Shown here: piece by piece, positions 335 to 48,109 of the stretch
Layout of the letters: every line of letters starts with the position of its first letter
Numbering within the stretch: position 1 is the first letter of the stretch
The notes under the pieces: model-generated
Told to the model about the DNA's origin: nothing
Databases searched by the model: none
What the model saw: only the letters and a program-made list of their open reading frames with translations
Assembly (NCBI RefSeq): GCF_947039605.1
Contig: NZ_CAMQZG010000008.1
Location: 21,841-85,840, forward strand
Direction: 5' to 3'
Source: an uncultured Clostridium sp.
Lineage (GTDB): Bacteria; Bacillota; Clostridia; Clostridiales; Clostridiaceae
DNA: 64,000 nt
Translations under genes and position numbers: made by a program

Positions 335-350
335 ATTAATTTTATATTTC

Positions 351-914: not shown

Positions 915-1009
915 AATTAATTCCTCCTAATTTTTCTCTCTATTTTTTTATATCTATTTTATATCTAATTTTTATATTTATTCTTATTTATTTTTAGTTT
1001 TAAATTCCG

Positions 1010-1025
1010 TTGATTAATTAATCAA
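1010..1025. promoter_or_regulatory. 16-bp perfect palindrome in the ahpC leader
   Basis: TTGATTAATTAATCAA is a perfect 16-base palindrome just downstream of the ahpC -10 box, near the expected transcription start. It could be an operator; the binding protein is unknown. In AT-rich DNA a chance origin is possible. Confidence 0.4.
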
Positions 1026-1042
1026 ATAATCTTTATGTACTA

Positions 1043-1071
1043 ATAATAGTTCTTATTTAGTTTGATGTCAA
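1043..1071 (-). promoter_or_regulatory. Sigma-A promoter of ahpC with PerR-box-like sequence
   Basis: On the minus strand TTGACA (1066-1071) and TATTAT (1043-1048) are separated by exactly 17 bases. The sequence TAAGAACTATTATTA over the -10 matches the PerR 7-1-7 consensus at about 11 of 15 positions. PerR control of ahpC is known in Firmicutes; here it is inferred from the match. Confidence 0.65.
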
Positions 1072-1242
1072 TACTTAATTGAAAATATCTTTCAATTAGA
1101 TGTAAAATTCTTTGTTCATATATATTTCCTTTTATTATAAATATAAACTTCTATTAACAGTGTTATACATTAGAGATTATTTTATCTCAGTTAACCTAAG
1201 CTATCTTGTAAAATTCTTGATTTTTCATAATATTTATTTTTA

Positions 1243-1300
1243 TAATTTAGTTTAGTGTGAACTACTCACCACTTAGCTAAAGCTTGAAGTGGGAGAATTC
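1243..1300 (-). mobile_element. Orphan IS200/IS605-type end hairpin (remnant)
   Basis: A hairpin pairs CTCACCACTT (1265-1274) with AAGTGGGAG (1287-1295). Read on the minus strand it has the layout GAATTCTCCCACTT...AAGTGGTGAGTAGTTCA, which I recognise from right ends of IS200/IS605 elements in Firmicutes. No transposase gene remains around it. It occupies part of the gap between ahpC and the alcohol dehydrogenase. The rest of that gap (1072-1242, 1301-1445) is AT-rich with nothing else that I recognise. Confidence 0.45.
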
Positions 1301-1463
1301 TCTCAAATTAAGTTAAAATCTTATTTACTTCTAAATATACTATTATCTTTAGAAAAATGAATAATTCTCCATAAAATTCACATTAATAAAGTATAGAATT
1401 AATTTATAATTTTATGAAATTAAATTTAACAAAACTATTTAAAAACAAAGGAGGATTATTCAT

Positions 1464-2624: not shown

Positions 2625-2702
2625 TATAGCACATCTTATATAGTTTTGACTTTTGCTAAGTATATTGGTTCTTCAAATAATATATCTAGGGAGGAATTAA
2701 CA

Positions 2703-3137
2703 TTGCATTTAGAAAAAGAATTGAACGTATACCTTGCAAACCAAAGTGTACTTCATACAAAACTACATAATTTACATTGGTATGTATCAGGGGAAGGATT
2801 TTTTACAATCCACCTAAAATTAGAAGAACTCTATACAGCTATGGCTACAGAAATGGATGCTGTTGCAGAACTTCTTCTATCATCAGGTTTTAAGCCAGTA
2901 GCTTCATTAAAAGCTCAGCTTGCTATAACTACTATCAAAGAACTTGCAGATACAAAAGTTAGTGCAAGAAAAGCAATGGAAACTGTTTTAGCAGATTTTA
3001 CACTAATGAAAGATGATGCTAAAAAAATAGCTACTCTTGCTGATAAAGATAAAAAACAAGCTATTGTAGACTTAATGAGTGGCTATGTTGCTGGATTTGA
3101 AAAAGATATTTGGATGCTTAATGCATACCTTGGATAA
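2703..3137 (+). CDS. dps: Dps/ferritin-like DNA-protection protein (TTG start)
   Basis: A Dps-family protein that oxidises and stores iron and protects DNA from peroxide. The conserved block KLHNLHWYVSGEGFF with HLKLEELYTAM supplies the ferroxidase ligands at the dimer interface. I place the start at TTG 2703 (MHLEKELN), because GGGAGG lies 8 bases before it. The frame is open upstream to another TTG at 2646, but that start has no ribosome site. This gives 144 residues. It follows the alcohol dehydrogenase by 78 bases and ends in a strong terminator, suggesting cotranscription. Confidence 0.9.
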   Translation: MHLEKELNVYLANQSVLHTKLHNLHWYVSGEGFFTIHLKLEELYTAMATEMDAVAELLLSSGFKPVASLKAQLAITTIKELADTKVSARKAMETVLADFTLMKDDAKKIATLADKDKKQAIVDLMSGYVAGFEKDIWMLNAYLG

Positions 3138-3148
3138 ATAATTTTAAG

Positions 3149-3179
3149 CAGTCGTATAATTTTTATACGACTGTTTTTT
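3149..3179 (+). terminator. Terminator after dps
   Basis: CAGTCGTATAA...TTATACGACTG hairpin followed by TTTTTT. Confidence 0.85.
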
Positions 3180-3222
3180 ATTGTATAATGTAGAAGTTAT
3201 TTTAAACTTCGGAGGTAAACAA

Positions 3223-3801
3223 ATGAAGAAGCCAGTTACTATACTTATAACAGCGCTTATATCAATAGTCCTATCTTTTGTGATATATAGATTTATGACT
3301 ATAAAATTAATTGACCTTATGTACTTTAATCAAGATTATTTAATTTGGGTGTATCTAGGATTTAATATTGTCCAAGCCATCTTAACCTTTATAATTTTAT
3401 TTTCTATATTAAATAGAAAAATTAATAAAATTAGTATTTTTGCTATAGGTGTACTTTATTTAATAACACTTGTTTTTGTTCTATTTGTAAGACAAAAAGG
3501 TGTACAGGGCTATGAATTTAATTTAGTTACAGACTACTATCAATGGACTGCTAATAGCACTAATATTCTTATTGCACTTATGAATGCAATATTATTCTTA
3601 CCACTTGCTTATATATTTAAAAGAGCAAAATATAGCATAGGAATTATTTCAGGAATCATTATAATTACTCTATGCGAAATAGCTCAGTATATATTCTCTC
3701 TTGGTATATTTGATATTGGAGATATTGTATTAAATAGCTTTGGTTTTATTGTAGGAATTATATTATTCAAAATAATATGCCCAAGAAAAGCTTTTACATA
3801 A
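3223..3801 (+). CDS. VanZ-like membrane protein
   Basis: A 192-residue integral membrane protein with about five hydrophobic helices (for example residues 6-25, 45-65, 69-86, 115-135, 139-175). The overall pattern resembles the VanZ/RDD-type family; the exact function is unknown. I choose ATG 3223 (MKKPVTILIT) because CGGAGGTAAACAA precedes it; the in-frame TTG at 3181 has no such site. It has its own terminators on both sides, so it is probably monocistronic. Confidence 0.65.
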   Translation: MKKPVTILITALISIVLSFVIYRFMTIKLIDLMYFNQDYLIWVYLGFNIVQAILTFIILFSILNRKINKISIFAIGVLYLITLVFVLFVRQKGVQGYEFNLVTDYYQWTANSTNILIALMNAILFLPLAYIFKRAKYSIGIISGIIIITLCEIAQYIFSLGIFDIGDIVLNSFGFIVGIILFKIICPRKAFT

Positions 3802-3843
3802 AAAAATCTACCTATCCTCTTCTAAGGTTAGGTAGATTTTTTT
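3801..3843. terminator. Bidirectional terminator between VanZ-like gene and proA
   Basis: AAATCTACCTA...TAGGTAGATTT stem with A-run before and T-run after, serving both convergent genes. Confidence 0.85.
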
Positions 3844-3850
3844 ATTTTAA

Positions 3851-5095
3851 TTATCTAATTTGTCCATTTCCATAAATAATATACTTACTTGTTGTAAGCT
3901 CTTTAAGCCCCATAGGACCTCTTGCATGAAGCTTTTGTGTACTTATTCCTATCTCTGCACCAAAACCAAACTCGCTACCATCTGTAAACCTTGTTGAAGC
4001 ATTAACATAAACTGCTGCTGCATCAACTCTTTGAAGGAACTTTTCTGAGTTAAAATAGTTAGTTGTGACTATTGCTTCTGAATGTCCTGTTCCAAATTTA
4101 TTTATATGTGCTATAGCATCGTCTAAACTATCAACAACTTTTACTGAAAGTATAAAATCTAAAAATTCTGTATTAAAATCTACTTCTGTTGCATCAACTA
4201 TATTCTCTACTATTGCTTTAGTTCTTGCACACCCTCTAATTTCAACACCTTTATCCATTAACTCTTTTAAAGCTATTGGAAGGAATTTTTCTGCTACATC
4301 TTTATGCACAAGCATTGATTCTGCTGCATTACAAACTCCTGGTCTTGAAGTTTTAGCATTTATAATTATATTCTTTGCCATCTGCATATCACACTCTGCA
4401 TCAACATATATATGACAATTTCCAGTACCAGTTTCAATAACTGGCACTGTAGCATTTTGAACTACTGCTTTTATAAGCCCAGCACCACCTCTTGGAATTA
4501 AGACATCAAGATAATCATTAAGTTTCATAAACTCACTCGCTGTTTCTCTTGAAGTATCTTCTAAAATTTGAACTGTTCCCTCTAAAAGTCCAACTTCTTT
4601 AACTGCATCTTTTATAATCTCAACTATTTTCAAGTTTGAATTTATAGCTTCTTTTCCACCTCTTAAAAGTACTGCATTACCAGTTTTCAAGCAAAGTGCC
4701 GCTGCATCAGCAGTTACATTTGGTCTTGATTCATATATTATTCCTACAACTCCAAGTGGAACTCTTTGAACTCCAATTTTAAGCTCATTCATCATCTTTT
4801 TCATAGAAGTAACTTCCCCGATTGGATCATCAAGTTTTACTATATGTCTAACACCCTCTGCCATTGCCTCGACTCTCTCTTTAGAAAGTTCAAGTCTATC
4901 AACTAAAGATTCTTTAGTTCCTTTTTCCCTTGCAACCTTAACATCTTTTTCATTCTCTACAAGAATTTCATCACATCTCTCACAAAGCTTATCTGCTATA
5001 TTTAAAAGTGCCTCATTCTTTTTAGCTGTTGCTGTTATTCCAAGTTCATAAGCTGCTTCTTTTGCAAGTTTACCTTTAACTATTAATTCACTCAT
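3851..5095 (-). CDS. proA: Gamma-glutamyl phosphate reductase
   Basis: Second step of proline synthesis: NADPH reduction of glutamyl 5-phosphate to glutamate semialdehyde. It has 414 residues, normal for ProA. The catalytic cysteine is in the PGVCNAAE motif, and the aldehyde-dehydrogenase-type signature GSEFGFGAEIGIST is near the C-terminus. The start is ATG 5095 (MSELIVKG). Its ribosome site AAAGGAG lies inside the last codons of proB, and one base separates the proB stop from this ATG, so the pair is translationally coupled. Confidence 0.96.
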   Translation of the reverse strand: MSELIVKGKLAKEAAYELGITATAKKNEALLNIADKLCERCDEILVENEKDVKVAREKGTKESLVDRLELSKERVEAMAEGVRHIVKLDDPIGEVTSMKKMMNELKIGVQRVPLGVVGIIYESRPNVTADAAALCLKTGNAVLLRGGKEAINSNLKIVEIIKDAVKEVGLLEGTVQILEDTSRETASEFMKLNDYLDVLIPRGGAGLIKAVVQNATVPVIETGTGNCHIYVDAECDMQMAKNIIINAKTSRPGVCNAAESMLVHKDVAEKFLPIALKELMDKGVEIRGCARTKAIVENIVDATEVDFNTEFLDFILSVKVVDSLDDAIAHINKFGTGHSEAIVTTNYFNSEKFLQRVDAAAVYVNASTRFTDGSEFGFGAEIGISTQKLHARGPMGLKELTTSKYIIYGNGQIR

Positions 5096-5096
5096 A

Positions 5097-5909
5097 TTAA
5101 TTCTCCTTTCTACCAATAAATAATGTTCCTACTTTTCTATCTTCAATTAAAATATCTCTAAGTATTGCAGGATTCTCACCATTTGCAAGCACCATACTAA
5201 TACCTTTATTAACTACTTTTTCAGCTGCTGAAATTTTAGTTCTCATTCCACCAGTTCCAAGTGATGAACCAGCATCTCCTGCACAGCCTCTAACCTCATC
5301 AGTTATTTCCTCTATCTCATTTATAAGCTTTGCATTCTTATCTTTTCTTGGGTCCCCATTATAAAAACCATCTATATCAGATAATATAACAAGTAAATCA
5401 GCACTAGTTAAAAGTGAAACTATCGCTGATAAATTATCATTATCTCCAAAATTACATATATTCTCTATCTCATCTATAGAAACCGTATCATTCTCATTTA
5501 CTATCGGAATTATTCCTTGTTCAAGCAATGTATCAAATGTATTACAAACATTATCTCTCATTCTTTCATCTTCTATAACATCTCTAGTTAAAAGAACTTG
5601 TGCAACTAAATGCCCATACTCTGCAAAAAACTTACTATATATATTCATAAGGTGACATTGACCAACAGCAGCTGCTGCTTGCTTTCCTTTAGTAGTAGTA
5701 GGCTTTTCTTTAAGACCCATTCTACTAATTCCAACTCCAACTGCCCCTGAAGAAACAAGTATCATTTCTTTCCCCATATTCTGAAGGTCAGATAAAACTC
5801 TTGCAAATTTTTCTATGCTCCCAAGATTTATATTTCCATTCTTATGTGTAAGGCTTGATGTCCCAACCTTTACAACTATTCTTTTTGCATCTTTTATGCT
5901 TACTGCCAT
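5097..5909 (-). CDS. proB: Glutamate 5-kinase, short form without PUA domain
   Basis: First step of proline synthesis: ATP phosphorylation of glutamate. The amino-acid kinase motifs VKVGTSSLTH, LVSSGAVGVG, IVNENDTVS and GGMRTKISAAE are all present. At 270 residues it stops after the kinase domain and lacks the C-terminal PUA domain of longer ProB proteins; such short forms are known in Firmicutes. The start ATG follows AAGGGGCG. It is the first gene of proBA. I see no T-box upstream. Confidence 0.95.
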   Translation of the reverse strand: MAVSIKDAKRIVVKVGTSSLTHKNGNINLGSIEKFARVLSDLQNMGKEMILVSSGAVGVGISRMGLKEKPTTTKGKQAAAAVGQCHLMNIYSKFFAEYGHLVAQVLLTRDVIEDERMRDNVCNTFDTLLEQGIIPIVNENDTVSIDEIENICNFGDNDNLSAIVSLLTSADLLVILSDIDGFYNGDPRKDKNAKLINEIEEITDEVRGCAGDAGSSLGTGGMRTKISAAEKVVNKGISMVLANGENPAILRDILIEDRKVGTLFIGRKEN

Positions 5910-6115
5910 TACTCTATTCGCCCCTTCTTATCTGTATTTTATTAATATTTATTATACCCTATATGTATTTCTTCTATCTATATAATCATACTTTAGAAAG
6001 TATAAATTTCATAATCATTAGTTACCTTTTAGTGCCTTGATAAATTTTTAGTATTAATATAAGCTATTTATAGAAGATAAATTATATACTGAAATAAAAA
6101 AACTTGGGGGTTAAT

Positions 6116-6925
6116 ATGTATAAATTAATAGCAATAGATATGGATGGAACTCTTTTAAATAGTAAGAAGGAAATCACACAAAGAACTAAAGATGCAATAA
6201 AAGCAGCAAGAGAAAAAGGTGTTTATGTAGTTTTAGCATCTGGTAGACCACTTGAAGGACTTTTAAAATCACTAGACCAATTAGAACTTATTACAAAAAA
6301 TGATTATGCTTTAAGTTATAATGGATGTCTTGTGCAAAATGTAGCTACAAAAGAAGTAATCTCAGATATTACTTTAAAAGGTTCAGACCTTATAGACCTT
6401 TTAGCTCATAGTAAAGAAGTAGGAGTTAACATACATAGTTTCTCAAAAGATAGAGGACTTATAACACCTAAACATAGTAAATACACACAAGTTGAAGCTG
6501 ATATAAATGATATAGATATAAATATTGTTTCTCATGATAATATAAATCCAGAAGAAACAATAGTTAAAGTTATGATGATTGATGAGCCAGAAGTTTTAGA
6601 TGCTGCAATGGCTAAACTTCCAAAAGAACTTTGGGATAAATATAGTGTAGCTAAAAGCACACCTTTCTTCCTTGAATTCTTCAACAAAGAATCAAACAAA
6701 GGACTCGCACTTGATAGACTTGTAAAGCACCTTGGAATTACAAAAGAAGAGGTTATAACTATTGGAGATGCAATGAATGACTTCCCAATGATTGAATATG
6801 CAGGAATGGGAGTTGCTATGGGTAATGCAGTACCTGAAATTAAAGCTGCTTCACAGTACATCACAGATACAAACGATAATGATGGAGTTGCAAAAGCAAT
6901 AGAAAAATTAGTTTTAGGATTATAA
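6116..6925 (+). CDS. HAD-superfamily Cof-type sugar/cofactor phosphatase
   Basis: A 269-residue cytosolic phosphatase of the Cof/YidA group. HAD motif I is DMDGTLLNS near the N-terminus, motif II is the serine in LASGRP, motif III is a lysine in the NKGLAL region, and motif IV is GDAMNDFPMI. The large middle cap domain (about residues 85-190) is the C2B type. ATG 6116 is chosen because GGGGG lies just before it; upstream TTG 6104 overlaps that site. The substrate cannot be read from sequence. Confidence 0.9.
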   Translation: MYKLIAIDMDGTLLNSKKEITQRTKDAIKAAREKGVYVVLASGRPLEGLLKSLDQLELITKNDYALSYNGCLVQNVATKEVISDITLKGSDLIDLLAHSKEVGVNIHSFSKDRGLITPKHSKYTQVEADINDIDINIVSHDNINPEETIVKVMMIDEPEVLDAAMAKLPKELWDKYSVAKSTPFFLEFFNKESNKGLALDRLVKHLGITKEEVITIGDAMNDFPMIEYAGMGVAMGNAVPEIKAASQYITDTNDNDGVAKAIEKLVLGL

Positions 6926-6947
6926 TATTTAATTCTGAGTTATAAAT

Positions 6948-6998
6948 AAAAAACCTGTGGATAACTTTTATGAAAAGTTGTCCACAGGTTTTTATTTT
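6948..6998. terminator. Bidirectional terminator
   Basis: AACCTGTGGA...TCCACAGGTT stem with A- and T-runs, between the HAD gene and the mgtA-side microprotein. Confidence 0.85.
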
Positions 6999-7088
6999 TT
7001 ATAAATCTTTTTTTATTAAAATCACAGCTGGTAAAATAATATACGCTATTGCTGCAACTATAAATCCTAATATTGTTAATGCACTCAT
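6999..7088 (-). CDS. 29-residue membrane microprotein behind mgtA
   Basis: An ATG at 7088 preceded by GAGGTGATAACT opens a 29-codon frame: one hydrophobic helix (LTILGFIVAAIAYIILPAVI) ending in a short basic tail LIKKDL. It starts 22 bases after the mgtA stop and runs up to the shared terminator, so it is probably in the mgtA operon. The size and layout resemble KdpF or the small proteins that bind Mg2+ transporters in enterobacteria. Homology to any of them is not shown; the link is inferred from position. Confidence 0.7.
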   Translation of the reverse strand: MSALTILGFIVAAIAYIILPAVILIKKDL

Positions 7089-7110
7089 AGTTATCACCTC
7101 ATAAACTTTC

Positions 7111-9762
7111 TTATAATATTGTTCCAAATCTTTTAAGATAAAGTTTCTTAGCTCCTTGTGTTAAGAAGAAGTAAGCTATTATTACAAATACTATAAATAT
7201 AAAGAAGTATGGTGTAAGTTTAACCATTCCGATTGTATGTCCAAAACTTGTGTATGGTAAGAACCATCCAATAAGAAGTGAAACTACAATTGAAATATTA
7301 AGCTGCCATGATGCATTACTTTGAAGGAATGGAATTTTCTCTGTTCTAAGCATATAAAGAACTAGAACCTGAGTTGTAAATCCTTCTATAAACCATCCAG
7401 TTTGGAAAGTTGCTGCTGAAGCAATAGTAGTACATCCAAATCCAAACCACATAAGTGCAAAAGTACAAATATCAAATATTGAATTTGTAGGTCCAAATAC
7501 AACCATCATCTTACCAATATCCTTAGCATCCCACTTTCTTGGTCTTGCAATAAGCTCCTCGTCTACATTATCCCAAGGTAAAAATACTTGTGTGATATCA
7601 TAAACCAAGTTCTGAATTAAAAGCTCAATAGGAAGCATAGGTACAAATGGTAGGAAAATACTAGCCATAAGAACACTTATAGCATTTCCGTAATTTGAAC
7701 TAGCTGTAATTTTAAGATATTTAGTAGTGTTTGCAAAAACTTTTCTTCCCTCAATAATACCTTCTTTAAGAACCATTAAATCCTTCTCTAAAAGTATTAC
7801 ATCGGCAGCATCTTTCGCAATATCAACTGCTGTATCAACTGAAATTCCAACATCTGCTTCTTTTAAAGCGATTGAATCATTTATTCCATCACCCATGAAC
7901 CCAACTATCTTATCACCGTTTCTTAAAACTCTAACAAGTCTAGCTTTTTGAAGTGGATTAAGTTTTGCAAATATGTTTGTTTTCATAGCAACTCTAAATA
8001 ATTTATCATCATCCATTTCTTCCATTTCTGGACCAAGAACAATATTAGTTATTTCAAAATTTAACTGCTCACAAACTTTTCTTGTAACAAGTTCATTGTC
8101 TCCTGTTAAGATTTTTACATCAACCCCATAATATGCAAGAGCTTTCAAAGCCTCTTGTGTGCTCTCTTTTGGTGGATCTAAAAATCCTATGAATCCAACT
8201 AAAATCATGTCGCTCTCATCTACCGGTGCAAATCTTTTTTCAGGGTCTTGGTCATTCTTAATAGAAACACCAATAACTCTCATACCTTCATTATTAAGCG
8301 CTCTGGCCTCTTTTCTAATTTTTGATAAAATCTTATCATTAATCTCAAGAATTTGACCATCAACCTCAACATATTTAGATACTGAAAGCATCTCCTCTAA
8401 TGCACCTTTTGTAATAATTTTTGCTTTATCTGTAAACTCATCTTTTATTACAACTGACATTCTTCTTCTTGTAAAATCAAATGCTATTTCATCTACTTTA
8501 TTAACTTTACCTTGTAACTCTTTATCAAAGTTTTTTTCTTTAGCAAGGTCCATAATAGCAAAATCTATAACATTCTGAAGTCCACTTTGAAGTGAACTAT
8601 TTATAAATCCGTACTTTAGGACATTATCACATGTTTCACCATTTATATTAATATGTGCTTCAACTGCTATTTTATCATCTGTAAGTGTTCCTGTTTTATC
8701 AGTACAAAGAATTTCCATTGAACCAAAGTTTTGGATAGCACTTATTTTTTTAACAACAGTTTTCTTCTTAGACATTTTAATTGCACCTTTTGCAAGGTTT
8801 TCTGAAACTATAGTTGGAAGCATTATAGGTGTTAATCCAACTGCTACAGAGGCTGCAAACACTAATGAATTCAAGAAACTTTTTGTTTGATACCAATCAA
8901 TAATAAAAACTAAAGGTACCATAATAAGCATAAACTTTAAAAGCATAGATGAAACTTTTTTAACACTTTTCTCAAAGCTTGTTTCCTCATCAATATCTGC
9001 CATTGAGCTTTGCATAGCTCCAAAATATGTGTGTTCTCCAACTCCAATAACTATTGCAGTAGCAGTACCACTAACAACATTTGTACCTAACAGACAAATG
9101 TTTTCATAATTTCCAGCCTCTTTACCTACTATATTATTCTCAACTTTCTTTTCAATTGGCTCAGATTCTCCTGTTAAAGCTGACTGACTTACAAAAAAGT
9201 TTTTACAATTTATAACTCTTAAATCTGCTGGAATAATATCTCCTGTTGTAAGTTTTATAATATCCCCTACAACTATATTAAGCATATCTACTTTTTCATA
9301 TTCACCATTATTTCTTTTAATATTACAAGTAGTAGTAATAAGTTTTTTAAGTGAGTCTGCTGCTTTTTCTGACTTATATTCCTGAACAAATGAAATAATC
9401 CCACTTGTGAATATAAGAATTCCTATAATTATTACCTGTGACCAACTTTCTTGAGCTTTTGGCACAAATACAACATTAGTTAGATATGTAATAATTCCTA
9501 TAATTAAAAGGACTAATACAAACGCATTCGCAAAAGATTTAAAGAGTTGTACCACTACTGGAACTTTCTTCTCTTCTTTTGTATTATTCTTTCCGTACTG
9601 ACTAGCATTTTTAGAAACTTGTTCTGGCTTTAAACCATTCTCTGATGTAGTGAACTTTTCACATAGTTCTTCTTTAGATAAATTAGTGTTTCTTTGTAGA
9701 TGTTTTACAACTCTATCAAAACCCTCTCTATCAAACTGTTTTTTAGCTTTATCTTTTTTCAT
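7111..9762 (-). CDS. mgtA: Magnesium-translocating P-type ATPase (MgtA/MgtB family)
   Basis: An inner-membrane ATP-driven pump expected to import Mg2+. It has 883 residues, usual for the P3B family. Actuator motif LTGESEP, phosphorylation motif DKTGTLT, nucleotide-binding KGALEEM, and hinge GDGINDS are all intact. Two hydrophobic segments lie near residues 70-125, two near 275-320, and six in the last 220 residues, as expected for ten helices. It starts at the ATG behind GGAGAGGATCGCAT. Its leader (about 700 bases) holds a group I intron-type ribozyme, very unusual for a Mg2+ transporter, and a microprotein gene follows it. Confidence 0.93.
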   Translation of the reverse strand: MKKDKAKKQFDREGFDRVVKHLQRNTNLSKEELCEKFTTSENGLKPEQVSKNASQYGKNNTKEEKKVPVVVQLFKSFANAFVLVLLIIGIITYLTNVVFVPKAQESWSQVIIIGILIFTSGIISFVQEYKSEKAADSLKKLITTTCNIKRNNGEYEKVDMLNIVVGDIIKLTTGDIIPADLRVINCKNFFVSQSALTGESEPIEKKVENNIVGKEAGNYENICLLGTNVVSGTATAIVIGVGEHTYFGAMQSSMADIDEETSFEKSVKKVSSMLLKFMLIMVPLVFIIDWYQTKSFLNSLVFAASVAVGLTPIMLPTIVSENLAKGAIKMSKKKTVVKKISAIQNFGSMEILCTDKTGTLTDDKIAVEAHININGETCDNVLKYGFINSSLQSGLQNVIDFAIMDLAKEKNFDKELQGKVNKVDEIAFDFTRRRMSVVIKDEFTDKAKIITKGALEEMLSVSKYVEVDGQILEINDKILSKIRKEARALNNEGMRVIGVSIKNDQDPEKRFAPVDESDMILVGFIGFLDPPKESTQEALKALAYYGVDVKILTGDNELVTRKVCEQLNFEITNIVLGPEMEEMDDDKLFRVAMKTNIFAKLNPLQKARLVRVLRNGDKIVGFMGDGINDSIALKEADVGISVDTAVDIAKDAADVILLEKDLMVLKEGIIEGRKVFANTTKYLKITASSNYGNAISVLMASIFLPFVPMLPIELLIQNLVYDITQVFLPWDNVDEELIARPRKWDAKDIGKMMVVFGPTNSIFDICTFALMWFGFGCTTIASAATFQTGWFIEGFTTQVLVLYMLRTEKIPFLQSNASWQLNISIVVSLLIGWFLPYTSFGHTIGMVKLTPYFFIFIVFVIIAYFFLTQGAKKLYLKRFGTIL

Positions 9763-9895
9763 ATGCGATCCTCTCCAATCATTTTTTTTGGTTTGGTCAC
9801 TTTATAAACATAAATTGAGTCTATAAAATAACAGAGGAAATGTCTGCATATAAAAACAGCCTTCTGTTCTAAAATTTAATTATTCAGTTTTAAAT
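9763..9895 (-). promoter_or_regulatory. mgtA leader, ribozyme-proximal segment with competing hairpins
   Basis: Read on the minus strand, AACAGAAGGCTGTTTTT is a short stem followed by a T-run, like a weak terminator. A little further on, CCTCTGT can instead pair with the ACAGAAGG of the same stem. CCTCT could also pair with the GGAGAGG ribosome site of mgtA. These are mutually exclusive pairings read by eye. They would fit attenuation linked to the ribozyme upstream, but are not evidence of it. Confidence 0.3.
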
Positions 9896-10420
9896 TTATC
9901 AATGAACCTAGGTCATTTTCATAGACATTTCATTCACATAGAATCGCTACTTCTATGCAGTTCTCTTATGAACTTCTTATGTTTTCACATAAGCGTAGAC
10001 TATCTTACCACCTGCTACTATAAAAGTAGTTAGGTGTCCTCCACTTCCACTATCAATAACTTATAGTGTACTGGCATTACGCCATAGTCGTTGAAGTTTC
10101 CTCTATTCGAGGCTTACCTGCTGATTGTCTATTTTCCTTACTTAACCTATTAAGTAATTTAAGTAGTACAGATATTACTACTTTGGACTAGCACTTAGGA
10201 TTTAACCATATGCTATCCAGCTAATTTTTTTTACTTTCGTAACATTCACACCTAGATATATTTCAACCTTATGTTTTAGTTTAGCTAGCTTTAAGAGTTC
10301 CCAGCAATTCAAAGGATTTTGTGTAAGTACAAAATACTTACAACTCAATGCTCTTTACGAACACGGGAGACTTACAGCTTTAATTAATTAAATTTTTGAA
10401 CCTAATTAACTGCTTGCCTC
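9896..10420 (-). ncRNA. Group I intron-type ribozyme in the mgtA leader
   Basis: On the minus strand the conserved group I core elements appear in order: P (GAATTGCTGGGAA, 10298-10310), Q (AATCAGCAGGTAAGC, 10112-10126), R (around TTCAACGACTAT, 10084-10100) and S (TAAGATAGTCTACG, 9994-10007). GCTG of P pairs with CAGC of Q (P4), and GACTAT of R pairs with ATAGTC of S (P7). P9-type hairpins follow (CTTATGT/ACATAAG, then CATAGAA/TTCTATG). A possible P1/P2 region lies at 10320-10420, where GGAGG is opposed by CTCCC. There is no open reading frame inside. Splice sites cannot be fixed by eye. Boundaries are approximate. Confidence 0.8.
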
Positions 10421-10723
10421 CAATAAAAACTTGTGAAAATTTTACTATCGAAGTTAATTTAATAACCTTGAAAAACTTTGCTAAATGCTAAGTCACACTA
10501 AATTATACTATTCTTATCAAAATATTGAAATTGAGTGAATATAACACATTAGCATATATAACTTATTAATATTATAAATTAGAAACTCATTTTCTAATTA
10601 GATTTCTATATTTCTTTTTTTTGCCATTTAATTTCAATAAAATAGCAATTAATGAATTATATTTTTTATATTTTATCAAAAAAAATTCTCTAAATTCATT
10701 AATTTAATTTTTCTTTAAAAAAG
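10421..10723 (-). promoter_or_regulatory. Upstream part of the mgtA leader and probable promoter
   Basis: A TATAAT hexamer lies on the minus strand at about 10503-10508 in an AT-rich stretch, so transcription could begin near 10490 and include the ribozyme. I see no coding frame. I found no recognisable M-box, cyclic-di-GMP or other metabolite aptamer between this point and the ribozyme. Confidence 0.4.
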
Positions 10724-10752
10724 CAAAAAATACTAGAATTGAAATCTAGTAT
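10724..10752 (-). terminator. Terminator of the interrupted dehydrogenase gene
   Basis: ATACTAGA...TCTAGTAT stem followed on the minus strand by TTTTTTGC. Confidence 0.75.
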
Positions 10753-10761
10753 CTTTTATGT

Positions 10762-11374
10762 TTATGTATTAGCAATTTTACCTCCATCTACATGAATAGT
10801 AGTCCCTGTAGTATATGAACCTGCTTGACTAGCTAAAAAGACATAAGGTTCTACAATTTCAACTGGTTGTGCAACTCTAAAGAACTCTCTATTCTCTGCA
10901 AACTTTTTAACATCCTGTGCACTAAATGATGAAACTATAAGAGGTGTCCAAACTGGTCCTGGGGCAACTGCATTAACTCTAATTCCTTTATCAGCTAAAT
11001 TAAGTGCAAGTGACCTTGTAAAACTAGTCAAAGCTCCTTTTGTAGATGAATAATCTATAAGTTTTTCATTCCCTCTATACGCAACTATAGAAGTTGTATT
11101 AATTATAGAAGACCCAAGTTTCATATATGGAATAACTGCTTTTGAAAGATAAAATGCAGAAAAAATATTAGTTTTAAAAGTTTTTAAAAGTTGCTCCTTT
11201 GTAATATCACAAATATCATATTGTGGATACTGAACTGCTGCATTATTTATAAGAATATCAACTGTCCCAAACCTCTCCACACATTGATTCACTACTTCTT
11301 TACACATATCCTCTTCTGTAATATCTCCTCTAACCAAAAGACACTCTCCACCTCTACTTTTTATAATACTTTCT
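10762..11374 (-). CDS. Short-chain dehydrogenase, 3' exon (split by IStron)
   Basis: This is the C-terminal part of an SDR of the YghA/YdaD glucose-dehydrogenase-like group. It reads in frame from about 11374 (ESIIKSRGGECLLVRGDIT...) and continues to a stop at 10762. The catalytic serine-tyrosine-lysine set is visible: STIVAY-type strand (NTTSIVAY), then YSSTK. The NNAAVQ motif and the C-terminal GGK are also present. It lacks the nucleotide-binding N-terminus, which lies at 13840-14108 on the other side of the IStron. RNA splicing of the IStron would rejoin the two halves into a protein of about 290 residues, the family length. Confidence 0.85.
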
Positions 11375-11378
11375 GACG

Positions 11379-11548
11379 TATAAACTCTATAATTCCTTAT
11401 AAATGCTTTATAATTTTTATAGTTCTATTTCCTTTTTCATTGAATCTAGTTTCACTCTAAAGCTACTTCTATTTGATATAATTCTCCAAAGGCTTAAATT
11501 CGACCTCGTCATTGCCTACATATTAGCTTAATCTTTTAATTTGATTTT
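11379..11548 (-). ncRNA. IStron 3' segment: intron 3' end and putative tnpB guide (omega) RNA
   Basis: The 170 bases between the tnpB stop and the 3' exon are non-coding and structured-looking. In IS607/IS605 elements the omega-RNA occupies this place, overlaps the 3' end of tnpB and ends at the element boundary, with the guide in the flanking host DNA. In IStrons the same bases include the 3' splice site, so splicing and guide production compete. Assignment is by position and family knowledge; I have not folded it. Confidence 0.6.
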
Positions 11549-12721
11549 TTAAGCTAATTTATACATTGCTAAGTTAAAACTTGCATTTTTATCTCTATCC
11601 ATTATAAGATTACACTTATCATTTATACATATATAAGTCCTATCTTTTAGTTGCAAGTCTTTTTTTATAGTTCCACAACAAGAACACATTTTACTGCTTG
11701 GAAAGAATCTATCTGCTTTTACAAACTCAATACCTTTCCACTTACATTTATGACTAAGAATAGTTATAAACTTATTGAAACATTGCTCTGAAATTGCTTT
11801 AGCTAAGTATTTATTTTTCATCATACCCTTAACATTTAAATCTTCTACAACAACTCTGCTAGGCTTGGTTTTCACGATAGCATTTGTGCTTTGATGTATA
11901 TGATTTAATCTAATATCTGCAATTTTTTTATGAACAAGTTTAATTTCTTTTTCAAGTTTTATGATATTTTGAGTTTTAATAAGTTTTTGACCTTTTTCAA
12001 AAACTTTGCCATCCTTCAACATATCATATTTTCTTGAAACTTGTCTTTATAGTCTTTTAAGTTTCTTATTTAATCTTCTCATTTCTTTAGATTTGTTAAT
12101 GTTTTTAAAAGTTTTTTCAAAATTAGAAACTATTGCTAAATTCTTAATGCCTAAATCTACTCCTACACTTTCGCCTGTTAGTTCTTCCTTTGTATTATCT
12201 TCACACTCAAAAGCAAGTGCTAAATACCAAAACTTTCCGTTATGTTTTATTCTAGGATTTAAGACTTTAATTTCATCTTTTTTATAGTTTCCAACTGGTA
12301 GTCTATCTTCATCTTTCATTTTTACATAACCTATCTTTTCTAACCTGATATAGTTATCCTCAACAACAAATTTATTGTTTAGGTGAAAGAATGAGGTTTG
12401 ACATTTGCCTTTTCTTTTAAATTTAGGATAGTCAGATTCTTTTTTGAAAAATCGTTGAAACGAATCTCCTAAATCTTTAAGTGCTTGTTGTGGTATCTCC
12501 GAAGAAACTTCTTTCAACCACTTGTATTCTTCTGATTTTCTAATCTCTGTAAAGACTTTTCTTAAATTTCCTATTGATAGAGATTTTTTATTTTCTTCAT
12601 AATAGTTATTTAAATAATTTAGTCCCCAATTATAAGAAAACCTAGCTACACCAGCACTTTTCCACATTAACTCTTCTTGTTTTTTAGTAGGATATAGTTT
12701 TACTTTAATTGCTTTAATCAT
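11549..12721 (-). pseudogene. tnpB: tnpB RNA-guided nuclease gene with an in-frame stop codon
   Basis: The two frames 12047-12721 (224 residues) and 11549-12022 (157 residues) are in the same reading frame, separated by a single TAA at 12047-12049. Reading through gives KLKRL-stop-RQVSRKYDMLKDG, and Q would fit at the stop, so one C-to-T change (CAA to TAA) explains it. The RuvC residues are visible: aspartate in GVDLGIKN, glutamate in VVEDLNV, aspartate in MDRDKNASFNLA. The zinc-ribbon cysteines are CSCC and CINDKC, the second pair with four instead of two residues between. The N-terminal piece would have only the first RuvC residue, so nuclease activity is probably lost unless the stop is read through. 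Confidence 0.85.
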
Positions 12722-13322
12722 TATTAGCCAACTCTTTAATCATAGCTTTAGTTTTCTTTGCTCTCTTTCCTTGAAGCATACAACTAAATACTGTGATTAT
12801 TTGAATTAAATCTTCTACAACCTCTTGTTCCTCTAACTTTTCAGTATTATCAATAACTTCTAGTTCAACAGATTTAAAGTCACATATATTTTCTATAAGT
12901 TCAAATCCAAATCTAACTAATCTATCTTTATACAATACGACAACCTTAGAAACTTCATCTTGTAAAATAAGTTGAATTAATTGATTAAGCCCTTTTTTAT
13001 CATAATTTATACCACTACCAATATCGGTTATTATCTTAAATTGATAACCTTTTGAAATTAAATAAGTTCGTACATTTTCAACTTGTCGTTCTAACGCTTC
13101 TTTCTGTTTAGCACTAGAAACCCTACAATATCCTATAACTAACCTCTCTTTATTACTAATCTCTCCATAAAACTCTTTAAGTTGTTTTTCTGTATAATAT
13201 CTATATCCAGTATCAGAATCAACTACTTGTGGCTTTAACTTTCCATTTTTATCCCAGTTACGGAGTGTTTGTTGTGTTTTATTAATTTTTTTAGCAAACT
13301 GACCTATCGAATATTTTTTCAT
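12714..13322 (-). CDS. tnpA: IS607-family serine recombinase (transposase TnpA)
   Basis: The small serine recombinase that moves IS607 elements. The N-terminus is a MerR-like helix-turn-helix (YSIGQFAKKINKTQQTLRNW, about residues 3-22, then DTGYRYYTEKQL). The catalytic domain starts near residue 60 with YCRVSS, the second serine region being the nucleophile. DRLVRFGFELI and the C-terminal helix typical of the family follow. I choose ATG 13322 (MKKYSIGQ) because AGGAGG is correctly spaced; the GTG at 13331 overlaps that site. It overlaps the start of tnpB by 8 bases. The frame is intact at 202 residues, so the element may still move without an active TnpB. Confidence 0.92.
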   Translation of the reverse strand: MKKYSIGQFAKKINKTQQTLRNWDKNGKLKPQVVDSDTGYRYYTEKQLKEFYGEISNKERLVIGYCRVSSAKQKEALERQVENVRTYLISKGYQFKIITDIGSGINYDKKGLNQLIQLILQDEVSKVVVLYKDRLVRFGFELIENICDFKSVELEVIDNTEKLEEQEVVEDLIQIITVFSCMLQGKRAKKTKAMIKELANND

Positions 13323-13399
13323 TGCGACCACCTCCTACAAATATAATAACACATCTGTATTAGAAGTCTATAAAAATTATAAAGTATTTACATTTAATT

Positions 13400-14120
<721 letters not shown>

Positions 14121-14167
14121 TCAAATTATATTTACTAGTATTATGGACTTTTTCAAAGGAAAATATA

Positions 14168-14226
14168 AAAAAACCATTATATAACTTACTCTTAACCTCA
14201 AAAGTAAATTTATATAATAGTTTTTA
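14168..14226 (-). terminator. Terminator of the 57-residue coiled-coil gene
   Basis: Long-loop stem AAACCATTATATAA/TTATATAATAGTTT with GGTTTTTTTATATTTT on the minus strand. Confidence 0.55.
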
Positions 14227-14277
14227 TCTTAATATAAGTCATTTCAAAGTAACACATTGAAATATACGTCTTATCTT

Positions 14278-14451
14278 CTAGCATCCATAGAAGTCTGGAA
14301 ATGATTTATCTGTGTTGGCCTTTGCATATTCATCTAGACCTTCCTTTAAATCTTCCATTTCATTTTCTAATTCCTCTAAACTTTTCTCTTTTAACTCTGA
14401 TTCAAGTTCTTTTATCTTACCGATTTTCATTTTCAATTCCTCTCCGCTCAT
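14278..14451 (-). CDS. Small charged coiled-coil protein, unknown function
   Basis: A 57-codon frame opens at ATG 14451 behind a well-placed GGAGG. The product starts MSGEELKMKIGKIKELE, is rich in Glu, Lys and Leu with heptad-like spacing (about residues 4-40), and ends KSFPDFYGC with a terminal cysteine. It has its own terminator. I do not recognise a family. It may be a soluble helical hairpin; no function is claimed. Confidence 0.7.
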   Translation of the reverse strand: MSGEELKMKIGKIKELESELKEKSLEELENEMEDLKEGLDEYAKANTDKSFPDFYGC

Positions 14452-14564
14452 AACGTACGCCTCCTAAGTTGAATACTTCTCTATATTACAACATCTCTAA
14501 ATAAAGACAAGTTCCTTAAAATATCATTTTTGCTAGTACAAATTAAATTTACTATTACTGAAAA

Positions 14565-15338
14565 TCAATTTTTTGTCACCTTGCTTTGTATTTTTTTAAC
14601 AATTTTAGCCATTAGTATATAAGGTAATATTTTTGATACCCCAAGTGCTACTTTATTAAAAAATCCTGGAACTACAATTGCCTTATTTTTCATAAGTCCC
14701 TTGTATCCTATCTTTGCAACATCATCTGATGACATAGCATTGCTTAAATCTTCTTTCCCTGCTTTTGTGCAAAACTCTGTTTTAGTTGCACCAGGGCATA
14801 ATGTTACAACACTAATTCCATAATCTTTTACCTCTTCTCTAATCGCTATAGATAAAGATAGAACATAAGCCTTACTTGCATAATAAACACCTATCATAGG
14901 TCCTGCCTGAAAGGCACCTGTTGATGCTACATTTAAAATCTTTCCACATTTATTTTTCTTCATATGATTTATAGCAAGATATGAAAATCTAGTTAAAGCT
15001 CTCATATTCACTTCCATTATATCCTCATGCTTCTCCCATGAAATACTTGGAAATTCACCATTAAAACCAGCACCTGCATTATTTATTACAACATCAACCT
15101 GTGGAAAACTTTCCTCAATACTTATCCACAGACTTTCTAATTTATCTCTATCTGAAATATCTGCTATATATATAGTAGTTTTTATATTAGACCTATTATC
15201 AAAATCTTTTTTTATCGTATCTAACTTTTCTTTATTTCTTCCAACAAGTATTAAATCATAATTATTACTCGCAAATATTTTTGCAAAAGATAATCCAATT
15301 CCACTTGTAGCACCTGTAATTAAAACTTTTTTTTTCAT
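14565..15338 (-). CDS. Short-chain dehydrogenase/reductase (DltE/YqjQ-like)
   Basis: A 257-residue NAD(P)-dependent oxidoreductase. Cofactor motif VLITGATSGIGLSFA, NNAGAG, and the active-site pair YYASK are intact. The C-terminal segment VVPGFFNKVALGVSKILPYILMAKIVKKI is hydrophobic and typical of the group that acts on lipid or wall-linked substrates. It starts at ATG 15338 with a weak GAGGAG-type site. The substrate is unknown. Confidence 0.85.
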   Translation of the reverse strand: MKKKVLITGATSGIGLSFAKIFASNNYDLILVGRNKEKLDTIKKDFDNRSNIKTTIYIADISDRDKLESLWISIEESFPQVDVVINNAGAGFNGEFPSISWEKHEDIMEVNMRALTRFSYLAINHMKKNKCGKILNVASTGAFQAGPMIGVYYASKAYVLSLSIAIREEVKDYGISVVTLCPGATKTEFCTKAGKEDLSNAMSSDDVAKIGYKGLMKNKAIVVPGFFNKVALGVSKILPYILMAKIVKKIQSKVTKN

Positions 15339-15624
15339 TTTCTACTCCTCTATACCTTAATATTAATTATATTAAGTTTATTATTTTTTGAATGATATAG
15401 AAATATAAACTTTCAATAATTAAACTTTTTTCTATTTTCTTTTAAATACCAAAAAAATACAAAGCAATTACAGTCAAGATTATTAAATTTAAATATGTAA
15501 CCTTTTAATTCCTTAAAAACTATAATATAACAAAATAATGTTATAAACTTTAACAAATTAGTGTTTTTTTAGGATGTTTGGTTAGAAAAATCGTAATAAT
15601 TTTATGTAAATGTTTAAATCCTTA

Positions 15625-15653
15625 TTGTGCTATACTTTTTAGCTTGTTATAAT
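15625..15653 (+). promoter_or_regulatory. Promoter of the purine permease gene
   Basis: TTGTGC (15625-15630) and TATAAT (15648-15653) are spaced by 17 bases. The leader (about 70 bases) has a GAAAGT/ACTTTC hairpin and a repeated TTATAATATG. It is not a recognisable purine riboswitch. The rest of the 390-base gap to the divergent SDR is AT-rich and unremarkable. Confidence 0.55.
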
Positions 15654-15729
15654 ATGAAAGTATTATTTGTGGAAACTTTCACTTTATAATATGGGAGGGT
15701 GAGGGCTACAACATTAACAAGGAGAAAAA

Positions 15730-17022
15730 ATGAATAGAATTTTTAAACTGAAAGAACATAACACAAATGTTAAAATCGAGCTTATGGCTGGATTGACTTC
15801 TTTCTTTGCAGCAGTTTATATTGTTGTAGTTAATGCTAGTATTTTAAGTGATGGAGGAAAAGGGATGCAACCGCTAATTATAGCGACTGTTCTAGCATCA
15901 ATAGCAGGTTGCCTGTTAGTTGCATTCATAAGTAATGCACCTCTGGTTATTATGCCAGGTATGGGAATCAATGCTTTATTCACCTACACAATAGTCCAAA
16001 CTATGGGACTAAGTTTTGAACAAGCACTTACAGCAGTAATTGTTTCAGGTATATTATTTACTATTATTGCGGTAACTCCAATATCAAATTTACTTGATAA
16101 AGGAATACCACATTCACTAAAGGCAGCAATAACTGTTGGAATAGGGTTATTTATAACATTCCTTGGTCTTCAAAAAGCAGGACTTGTTATAGCTGATAAA
16201 ACAACTCTTGTAAAAATGGCTAGTCTTGGACAAGCGCATATATTAGTATTTGTTTTAACACTAATTCTTATGGTTATATTATTTATAAAAAAAGTTCCTG
16301 GAAACTTCCTTATCGGAATAATCTTTGGAACAGTATTATCAATAATTCTTGGAGATACAAACTTTAGTACAGCAGGTTTTGCGGTGCCAAGCTTCTCTGA
16401 TTACGGTTCTGTATTTATGCAATTTGATTTTAAAGGAATGGCAAACATGAACTTCTGGGTTGCAGTATTCTCACTAACTCTTGTACTTGTATTCGAGAAT
16501 GTTGGTCTACTCCATGCACAAGTTAACGGAATGCTTGATGCACCACATAAAAATAAAAAAGCACTTATGTCAGTTGCTCTTTCTACAATAGCTTGTGGAA
16601 TATTTGGTACTAGCCCTTCAGTTTCAACAGTTGAAGGACAATCTGGTATAATTTCAGGTGGTAAAACTGGATTAACAGCTGTTTTTGCAGCCTTCTTCAT
16701 ATTACTATCATTATTCTTTATACCAACAATAACACTTATACCAAATGCAGCAATTGCACCAATACTAATAATAATTGGATCACTTATGATGGCTAACATA
16801 AAAGAAATAGATTTTTCTGATTTCTCAGAGTCATTCCCAGTATTCATATTATTTATATTAATACCTTTAACATTTAGTATTGTTGATGGTATGGCATTTG
16901 GATTTATACTTTATCCAATCACAAAAATATGTGTAAAAAAAGGTAAAGAAGTTCCAATTCCTACGTATGTAGTCTCAGGAATTTTCCTAATCTACCTACT
17001 AATGCACGCATTCAATATATAA
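15730..17022 (+). CDS. NCS2/AzgA-type purine permease (hypoxanthine/guanine/adenine)
   Basis: A 430-residue membrane transporter with about 13 hydrophobic helices. The signature MPGMGINALFTYT near residue 78, the GTSPSVSTVEGQSGI segment and the N-terminal ELMAGLTSFFAAVYI are diagnostic of the AzgA/PbuG branch of nucleobase:cation symporters. It starts behind AAGGAG. It is monocistronic, between its promoter at 15625 and the terminator at 17023. Exact substrate among purine bases is not determined. Confidence 0.9.
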   Translation: MNRIFKLKEHNTNVKIELMAGLTSFFAAVYIVVVNASILSDGGKGMQPLIIATVLASIAGCLLVAFISNAPLVIMPGMGINALFTYTIVQTMGLSFEQALTAVIVSGILFTIIAVTPISNLLDKGIPHSLKAAITVGIGLFITFLGLQKAGLVIADKTTLVKMASLGQAHILVFVLTLILMVILFIKKVPGNFLIGIIFGTVLSIILGDTNFSTAGFAVPSFSDYGSVFMQFDFKGMANMNFWVAVFSLTLVLVFENVGLLHAQVNGMLDAPHKNKKALMSVALSTIACGIFGTSPSVSTVEGQSGIISGGKTGLTAVFAAFFILLSLFFIPTITLIPNAAIAPILIIIGSLMMANIKEIDFSDFSESFPVFILFILIPLTFSIVDGMAFGFILYPITKICVKKGKEVPIPTYVVSGIFLIYLLMHAFNI

Positions 17023-17060
17023 GAAAAAGCCTACTAATTTTAAAATTAGTAGGCTTTTTC
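17023..17060. terminator. Bidirectional terminator
   Basis: AAAAAGCCTACTAATTTT hairpin with its complement and a T-run, between the permease gene and hcp. Confidence 0.85.
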
Positions 17061-17081
17061 TATATCTATATTATATTCTAC

Positions 17082-48100: not shown

Positions 48101-48109
48101 TATAATATA

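What the first reader, a model, noticed from the sequence alone, without database searches (positions are those of the whole stretch)
9896..10420. Self-splicing-type group I ribozyme placed in the leader of a Mg2+ transporter gene
All four group I core elements (P, Q, R, S) with P4 and P7 pairing are visible directly upstream of mgtA on its strand. There is no reading frame in it, and it lies between the mgtA promoter region and the start codon, so it does not interrupt a protein gene. Group I ribozymes need Mg2+ to fold, and mgtA-type genes need to respond to Mg2+. The ribozyme could therefore itself be the Mg2+ sensor: splicing or cleavage when Mg2+ is high could change access to the ribosome site or a terminator. 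Known riboswitch-ribozyme pairs (cyclic-di-GMP-II with a group I ribozyme in C. difficile) show that such regulation exists, but I know of none for a Mg2+ transporter.
Basis: partly seen in the sequence, partly recalled or inferred. Interest (0 to 1): 0.85.

Follow-up and report, generated by a model that had tools for sequence, protein, structure and literature searches.

The report
Self-splicing intron inside mgtA's ribosome site
A group I intron related to a family of bacterial jumping genes lies between a ribosome-landing-like sequence and the start of a likely magnesium-import gene, and it is predicted to cut itself out so that the gene would be translated mainly after splicing; nothing found here shows that it senses magnesium.

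Summary
In detail: a group I ribozyme (IA2-type, P4, P7, P7.1, P7.2, P8, P9) lies on the minus strand directly before an 883-aa MgtA-type ATPase gene. Its extent is probably wider than claimed, 10416 to 9775. The nearest relative of its core is the intron half of a TnpB-bearing IStron in the same genus; this copy has no transposon genes. Its 5' exon ends in a Shine-Dalgarno-like GGAGG|C. The only 3' end that fits a P9.0 rule, obeyed by 24 of 25 repeat-anchored relatives, is TTGG|AGAGGATCGCATATG, just before mgtA. In the precursor the mgtA ribosome site and AUG are predicted to be locked in a stem whose 5' arm lies in the intron; splicing would free them. A second species has an intron at its own mgtA, splitting GGAG from AUG; the two introns are not sisters (AU p=0.012). 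Of 40 copies with both ends assigned (window included), 11 split a Shine-Dalgarno from its start codon, and a c-di-GMP-II/group I locus, probably the known C. difficile one, has the same anatomy. So: a new variant of a known kind, splicing-gated by inference. The magnesium-sensor idea is unsupported, and its sign would be wrong for an importer.

The parts
10417..10421 (-). 5' exon end: Shine-Dalgarno-like GGAGG; predicted 5' splice site between 10417 and 10416
   Evidence: Can pair with the internal guide UCUCC 10370-10366 (P1; C10416-G10371 continues it); junctions of the same kind (mostly GAGG|TAAC, GGAG|CAAC, GGTG|CAAC) were found by script in 43 other copies
9775..10416 (-). predicted group I intron, 642 nt, no ORF of 60 aa or more in it
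   Evidence: RF00028, model R1, ORF list, end rule
10366..10371 (-). internal guide sequence G-UCUCC, 3' strand of P1
9976..10370 (-). Rfam Intron_gpI match
   Evidence: 50.9 bits, E 9e-12
10084..10089 (-). P7 5' strand GACUAU (element R)
9998..10003 (-). P7 3' strand AUAGUC (element S)
9994..9995 (-). P9.0 5' strand CG, predicted to pair with UG 9777-9776 before the terminal G 9775
   Evidence: 24 of 25 repeat-anchored 3' ends of relatives obey the rule; only one YGG in 9935-9760
9775..9935 (-). 3' tail of the intron after P9.2, holding the 5' arm of the masking stem; alternative 3' splice site AAGG|CTG at 9860|9859
9756..9856 (-). predicted stem (5' arm 9856-9819, 3' arm 9809-9756) that hides the mgtA Shine-Dalgarno (AGAGGA 9774-9769) and AUG (9762-9760)
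   Evidence: segment 9960-9740: z -3.52, 1 of 200 shuffles as stable; unpaired probability at most 0.06
10418..10453 (-). predicted 5' exon hairpin (CUUCGAUA 10453-10446 with UAUUGGAG 10425-10418) that competes with P1 for GGAG
7111..9762 (-). mgtA, 883 aa, Mg-translocating P-type ATPase
   Evidence: TIGR01524 1042 bits
11373..13846 (-). neighbouring full IStron in an SDR gene: group I part, IS607 tnpA 13331-12714, tnpB interrupted by a stop 12721-11549, RAGATH-18 11492-11429
   Evidence: joining the flanks gives an open SDR frame of about 290 codons

Best explanation
This is a group I intron without transposon genes, sister in its core to a TnpB-bearing IStron intron and lying between a Shine-Dalgarno-like GGAGG and mgtA, and it is predicted to splice itself out, which would join GGAGG to AGAGGAUCGCAUAUG and so likely switch mgtA translation on. 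In the unspliced RNA the mgtA ribosome site and start codon are predicted to be paired in a long stem whose 5' arm belongs to the intron. Splicing (guanosine-dependent, as known for group I introns) would remove that arm. The insertion is most simply explained by the GG target of group B IStrons, for which Shine-Dalgarno sequences are natural targets; the intron is then a tolerated selfish element that has made mgtA depend on ribozyme activity. Shown by calls: ribozyme core, relatives, guide complementarity, end rule, stem prediction, recurrence at a second mgtA and at other Shine-Dalgarnos. Inferred: splicing itself, the exact 3' end, and the effect on translation.
For: Core. Nearest relative is the intron of a TnpB-bearing IStron (G005C10, 85% over 285 columns, support 95/90), whose ends are fixed by its host gene (joined frame 1219 codons). 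A P1 of the published group B register (junction after G, first intron base paired with the guide; Tourasse 2014, PMC4227781, sections 14-16 and part 1 of 20 read) was found by script in 44 of 50 copies. P9.0 rule: CG to CGG| (15), UG to CAG| (5), AG to CUG| (4), 24 of 25 repeat-anchored ends (ends read by eye); in the window the only fit is TTGG|AGAGG. 11 of 40 copies with both ends assigned put a start codon 6 to 12 nt behind the junction of a Shine-Dalgarno, among them csrA, spoIIID and a ferredoxin. G004 mgtA: GGAG|AAATATTTT-ATG, anti-SD duplex -7.3 spliced against +0.2 unspliced. Window: ribosome site unpaired probability at most 0.06 unspliced; AGAGG 0.47-0.96 and AUG 0.70-0.83 spliced. 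Positive control: the c-di-GMP-II/group I locus L178 shows GGAG|TAAC...TATCAG|GAGAATT-TTG.
Against: No splicing data. In the fold of the full precursor with 54 nt of 5' exon (10470-9740) P1 has pair probabilities of only 0.17-0.18, a 5' exon hairpin holding GGAG 0.71-0.77; P1 wins in 10470-10320 (0.88-1.0) and in 10440-9740 (0.93-0.96). After splicing the first four bases of the joined GGAGG are mostly paired (0.05-0.14 unpaired). The first intron base is C, not U as in its nearest relatives (but C is the rule in the GGAG|CAAC subtype, which includes TnpB-bearing copies); the guide has a G.U at -1, and P9.0 uses a G.U. mgtA has its own AGAGG, so the anti-SD duplex changes only from -6.4 to -9.3: the gating rests on the masking stem, a prediction. 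That stem survives if the 3' site is 9860|9859. The published 3' termini CGG/CAG and a terminal AU-rich inverted repeat were not found in this copy.
Confidence: 0.64

Rival explanations
1. The intron splices at AAGG|CTGTTTTTATATG (9860|9859). The junction would then build a Shine-Dalgarno for a 15-codon leader ORF, MQTFPLLFYRLNLCL (9849-9802), whose translation would open the stem that hides the mgtA ribosome site.
For: Terminal GG, the base at position 3 after P7 pairs, spacing of 10 nt to the AUG, and the ORF covers most of the 5' arm of the stem.
Against: Breaks the second P9.0 pair (G opposite A), which holds in 24 of 25 repeat-anchored relatives; the tail 9859-9776 shows no significant likeness to the intron-less leader of C. 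mediterraneense (92 of 300 shuffles as good), and that leader has other short ORFs but not this one.
Confidence: 0.14
2. A decayed relic: the ribozyme no longer splices, and mgtA is read from its own AGAGG when the stem breathes or when an upstream ribosome opens it.
For: Changed first base and guide, no canonical 3' end, own ribosome site; P1 not favoured in the full-length fold.
Confidence: 0.12
3. The ribozyme is itself the Mg2+ sensor of mgtA.
For: Two insertions at mgtA leaders of one genus that look independent; this mgtA clade has no M-box match while 15 of 20 mgtA loci searched do.
Against: Sign: splicing would switch an importer on when Mg2+ is plentiful. Same intron family in many other genes. 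Four further mgtA genes of the clade have no ribozyme match.
Confidence: 0.05
4. An allosteric ribozyme with an unrecognised aptamer or anti-P1 switch in the 5' exon, like the c-di-GMP-II one of C. difficile.
For: A hairpin CUUCGAUA/UAUUGGAG (10453-10446 with 10425-10418) would hold the GGAG that P1 needs (z -2.84 alone, 2 of 200 shuffles), and in the full precursor fold it beats P1 (0.71-0.77 against 0.17-0.18).
Against: z only -0.79 with more flank; P1 wins in the 151-nt segment 10470-10320; such folds leave out tertiary contacts of the ribozyme; G004 shows no such hairpin; no Rfam aptamer at E up to 1.
Confidence: 0.09

Closest known systems
Group B IStrons (BcISt1, CbISt, CsISt1; Tourasse, Stabell and Kolsto 2014, PMC4227781) and their ORF-less BcISt1 variants
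   Same: IA2-type core with P7.1/P7.2 and several P9 hairpins, insertion after GG, last exon base G, first intron base can pair with the guide; nearest core relative here is a TnpB-bearing copy
   Different: No IS607 genes, no terminal inverted repeat found, first base C and end TGG instead of U and CGG/CAG; sits in a Shine-Dalgarno-like leader sequence and not in a coding frame
Turicibacter group IA2 intron with homing site GGAGG (mentioned in PMC4227781, section 16)
   Same: GGAGG site, no terminal inverted repeat, no IS
   Different: Its gene context is not given in the text read; not compared by sequence here
C. difficile c-di-GMP-II aptamer plus group I ribozyme (Lee 2010, Chen 2011: not held, recalled and as told in passages of PMC3984707 and PMC9481103)
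   Same: A locus of that build (L160/L178) has the same core family (157.6 bits on R1) and GGAG|TAAC 5' end; by the reviews splicing puts the ribosome site before the start codon
   Different: No c-di-GMP-II or other Rfam aptamer before the window's intron; different gene
M-box Mg2+ riboswitch (RF00380)
   Same: Leader RNA of mgtA-type genes in the same family
   Different: No match in the window, in L028 (G004) or in the four other mgtA loci of this clade

Membership tests
Group I introns (subgroup IA2) | P4 and P7 with R and S elements, guanosine site in P7 | tested here: met
   RF00028 50.9 bits; covariation
Group I introns (subgroup IA2) | P7.1 and P7.2 hairpins and extended P9 domain | tested here: met
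   GGC/GCC, CACUAU/AUAGUG, CUUAUGU/ACAUAAG, AGUUC/GAACU
Group I introns (subgroup IA2) | U.G pair at the 5' splice site | tested here: not met
   Last exon base G, first intron base C opposite G; the shifted register is that of group B IStrons, and C is common in one subtype. Published as nearly but not wholly universal (PMC4227781)
Group I introns (subgroup IA2) | Self-splicing | not testable with these tools
   needs transcript
Group B IStrons | Insertion after a GG-ending site, shifted P1 register | tested here: met
   GGAGG|C; P1 itself competes with a 5' exon hairpin
Group B IStrons | IS607-type tnpA and tnpB inside the intron | tested here: not met
   No ORF of 60 aa in 9775-10416, tnpB search negative
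Group B IStrons | 3' end CGG or CAG after an AU-rich inverted repeat | tested here: not met
   Best end is TGG; no matching repeat found
c-di-GMP-II allosteric group I ribozyme | c-di-GMP-II aptamer directly before the intron | tested here: not met
   Only RF00028 in 9700-10760 at E up to 1
Mg2+ riboswitches (M-box) | RF00380 aptamer in the leader | tested here: not met

The most novel reading that the evidence does not exclude
Group B IStron-type introns are a standing supply of splicing-gated ribosome sites: because they land in GG motifs they repeatedly split Shine-Dalgarno sequences from start codons (mgtA twice independently, csrA, spoIIID, a ferredoxin, ABC transporters), the C. difficile c-di-GMP ribozyme is only the one copy that gained an aptamer, and at mgtA the ribozyme has been kept as a real control element whose splicing yield reports guanosine and Mg2+ state.
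Probability: 0.15. Interest if true: 0.86.

Novelty: new variant of a known kind. Interest (0 to 1): 0.6.

Why it matters
The C. difficile c-di-GMP-II ribozyme has been described as the only natural allosteric ribozyme of its sort (PMC9481103, section 39). If its aptamer-less relatives commonly sit in Shine-Dalgarno sequences, its origin becomes plain: a mobile intron lands in a ribosome site, translation becomes dependent on splicing, and an aptamer can be added later. It also gives ready test cases, two of them at an Mg2+ transporter, for whether bacterial gene expression is limited by ribozyme activity.

Tried and rejected
Mg2+ sensing by the ribozyme: no evidence and wrong sign. A shared origin of the two mgtA-leader introns: both have an extension on the P5 side, which at first suggested it, but the core tree separates them and the AU test rejects a common clade (log-likelihood 35.6 lower, p 0.0116; one alignment of 320 columns, and the pair was named after the tree had been seen, so the p-value is optimistic). 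First reading of P1 as the hairpin CCCGUGUUCGUAAAGAGCAUUGAG (as Rfam aligns it): dropped because the junctions fixed by IStron boundaries lie upstream of it, 46-83 nt before the guide; it is P2. 3' end at AACAG|AAGG (9864|9863): breaks the first P9.0 pair. Homology of the 3' tail to the intron-less leader of Clostridium mediterraneense (L038): not significant (92 of 300 shuffles). An anti-masking pairing of 9926-9912 with 9832-9819: 9.7 kcal/mol worse than the masking fold. Metal-transporter theme: the G006 copy lies before a metal-binding-protein-like gene, but a terminator-like hairpin seen by eye lies between and no P1 was found, so it was not counted. The search for related loci with MgtA gave only 4 loci. 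Enrichment of transposon-free copies at Shine-Dalgarnos: not claimed; transposon-bearing copies are there too. Excess over chance is modest: 38 of 263 GGAG and 35 of 254 GAGG sites of the window look like Shine-Dalgarnos, so 11 of 40 has P about 0.02, not corrected for kinship; in 42 fetched loci of relatives the rate was 87 of 1193 and 81 of 881. A promoter and a terminator: scan negative for both in the leader on the intron's strand, apart from one weak promoter-like site at 9902-9873.

Full report
What is there. On the minus strand, directly before an 883-aa gene that matches the Mg-translocating P-type ATPase model (TIGR01524, 1042 bits), lies a group I ribozyme. Rfam RF00028 matches 9976-10370 at 50.9 bits (gathering score 50), although the scan of the whole window and the genome search with that family did not report it, so the match is at the edge; the gathering-threshold scan also missed close relatives. 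A core model built from seven related sequences (R1; the window is one of them, so its own 185 bits are partly by construction) rests on an alignment with 97.2% standard pairs, 19 of 36 pairs with changes on both sides, and no shuffle of 500 as good.

What it belongs to. R1 found matches in 49 of 194 genomes of the family (E up to 1e-4), in 29 of 225 of the order and 11 of 391 of the class (E up to 1e-15; the samples overlap). I took the 50 distinct matches of 105 bits or more of the family search (the contig C12 duplicate of the window left out). By tblastn with seven TnpB proteins within 2600 nt, 36 of 50 have TnpB behind the core and 14 have none, the window among these. In a tree of 49 of them (one cut by a contig end left out) the window's nearest relative is the intron of a TnpB-bearing IStron of the same genus, G005C10 (support 95/90). 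The label 'no TnpB' needs 13 changes on that tree, at least 10 by well supported branches, and is not clustered at all (500 of 500 shuffles as low): most simply, the transposon was lost many times.

How the ends were found. In the IStron G005C10 the broken host gene fixes both ends: GAAGAGG|TAACTAAC...GCAACGG|ATGC (joined frame 1219 codons). Tourasse and co-workers describe just this for group B IStrons: insertion after GG, last exon base G, the critical pair shifted by one position, ends CGG or CAG (PMC4227781; sections 14-16 and part 1 of 20 read; other passages). A P1 of this register was found by script in 44 of 50 copies: mostly GAGG|TAAC, GGAG|CAAC and GGTG|CAAC; two of the missing six are cut by contig ends. 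The window reads GGAGG|CAAG with guide UCUCC. At the 3' end I noticed that the third and fourth bases after P7 (AUAGUC) pair with the two bases before the last intron base: CG with CGG (15 copies), UG with CAG (5), AG with CUG (4). In one search a repeat-anchored end could be read in 25 of 50 copies; 24 fit, and the 25th (G021C114, with A in the fourth place, ending in a run CCAGGGG) does not fit fully. Two others with A there (G160, G113) had no anchored end. In the window the bases are CG, and between P9.2 and the start codon there is exactly one YGG, ending at 9775. This gives an intron of 642 nt and a spliced leader ...UUAUUGGAGG|AGAGGAUCGCAUAUG.

What splicing would do. In the precursor a stem pairs 9856-9819 with 9809-9756, over the mgtA Shine-Dalgarno and its AUG. 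The 221-nt segment is more stable than all but one of 200 shuffles (z -3.52). Predicted unpaired probability is at most 0.06 for the Shine-Dalgarno and 0.05 for the AUG in the segment, and no higher in the full precursor. After splicing the 5' arm is gone; AGAGG is 0.47-0.96 and the AUG 0.70-0.83 unpaired, though the first four bases of the joined GGAGG are then largely paired within the 5' exon (0.05-0.14 unpaired). So the claim is that splicing unmasks mgtA; it is a prediction from thermodynamic folding.

A point against. The same 5' exon hairpin competes with P1. In the fold of 10470-9740 P1 has probabilities of 0.17-0.18 and the hairpin 0.71-0.77; in 10470-10320 and in 10440-9740 P1 wins (0.88-1.0 and 0.93-0.96). 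Such folds ignore the tertiary contacts of a group I ribozyme, but the hairpin could slow splicing, or be a switch; I have raised that rival for it.

Recurrence. Genome G004 of the same genus has an intron of the other subtype at its own mgtA: GGAG|TAAC...GACAG|AAATATTTTATG. There the precursor has no ribosome site of note before the AUG (anti-SD duplex +0.2 against -7.3 spliced). The MgtA tree puts the two proteins in different branches of one six-member clade (midpoint root, the deciding fork has 90/89 and is not fully supported), and the introns are not sisters (AU p 0.0116, pair named after seeing the tree), so these look like two independent insertions. Four other mgtA genes of the clade have no ribozyme match (G001, by its coordinates C. 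mediterraneense; G173; G006; G000:C4). The clade also has no M-box, which 15 of the 20 mgtA loci have (the five without are these four and one locus cut by a contig end); window and G004 have none either. Across the 40 copies with both ends assigned, 11 place a start codon 6-12 nt behind a junction in a Shine-Dalgarno: mgtA twice, csrA, SpoIIID (whose TTG start agrees with the SpoIIID model), a ferredoxin, a glutamine-amidotransferase-like hydrolase (below its model's cut-off), two ABC ATPases and three others (names; the 108-aa protein matched nothing at 1e-10, the other two were not searched). Four of the 11 carry TnpB. One further case (G059C2a) was ambiguous and not counted; for four of 44 no 3' end was assigned. 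For seven of the 11 the 3' end is anchored by the repeat (one of them G021C114, with its ambiguous run); for the window, G004, G005C55 and G160 it rests on the P9.0 rule or the terminal motif. G213, found later, repeats the 108-aa case.

Positive control. In the class search an unnamed 4.26-Mb genome gave L160, fetched larger as L178: a c-di-GMP-II aptamer (RF01786, 76.6 bits) directly followed by GGAG|TAAC, a core of 157.6 bits, and TATCAG|GAGAATT-TTG before a 692-codon frame. From memory this is the C. difficile locus of Lee 2010; the original papers are not held. Reviews state that with c-di-GMP the processing there moves the ribosome site next to the start codon (PMC3984707, passages) and that the authors found the pairing in no other species (PMC9481103, section 39 and passages). 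The known case thus has the anatomy deduced here without it.

Is it chance? Sites that look like Shine-Dalgarnos make up about 14% of GGAG and GAGG sites in the window and 7-9% in 42 fetched loci; 11 of 40 is about twice the former (P about 0.02, no correction for kinship). The GG target explains most of it. Two hits on mgtA suggest retention at that gene but the numbers are too small to claim it.

Print. Searches for group I intron or ribozyme with mgtA, IStron with ribosome binding site or Shine-Dalgarno, IStron with splice site, group I ribozyme with ribosome binding site or Shine-Dalgarno and riboswitch and IStron with TnpB listed nothing that I recognised as a description of group I introns split into Shine-Dalgarnos other than the C. 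difficile case. The library holds open-licence papers only; I saw listings, and sections or passages of six papers (PMC4227781, PMC3073962, PMC3984707, PMC9481103, PMC3649979, PMC6435816). Tourasse 2014 names a Turicibacter intron with homing site GGAGG, but its main text has no occurrence of 'untranslated' or 'start codon'.

Verdict.

Noticed in passing
11373-13846: A full IStron with IS607-type tnpA (CAG|TAAC...GTCAG|) splits an SDR gene upstream; its tnpB has an in-frame stop.
   Followed up: partly
11429-11492; also L034 5708-5769, L027 665-737 and 8650-8712: RAGATH-18 (RF03064) recurs behind tnpB at the right end of IStrons, so this Rfam family is probably part of the IS607-type right end or its guide RNA (inference).
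   Followed up: partly
L122 (G091:C9): A TnpB-bearing IStron sits in the Shine-Dalgarno of csrA, 7 nt before its start once spliced.
   Followed up: partly
L132 (G160:C26): A transposon-free intron sits in the Shine-Dalgarno of spoIIID, whose start would be TTG 8 nt behind the junction.
   Followed up: partly
G000:C12:44000-59995: 16 kb of another contig is identical to window 1-15996, probably an assembly redundancy.
   Followed up: yes
G000:C6:30282-30565 and 31239-31511: Two further group I intron matches about 1 kb apart in the same genome (only the first is above the cut-off).
   Followed up: no
mgtA leaders of the window's clade (L043, L044, L046, L072): No M-box riboswitch, unlike 15 of the 20 mgtA loci searched; G001 has a short ORF MEDVPGQFSITHSWNSCNLVWSEY in its leader.
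   Followed up: partly
33757-33857: SAM riboswitch, 80.4 bits.
   Followed up: no
6944-6997, 17015-17069, 48105-48154: Inverted repeats of about 50 bases, two of them similar to each other.
   Followed up: no
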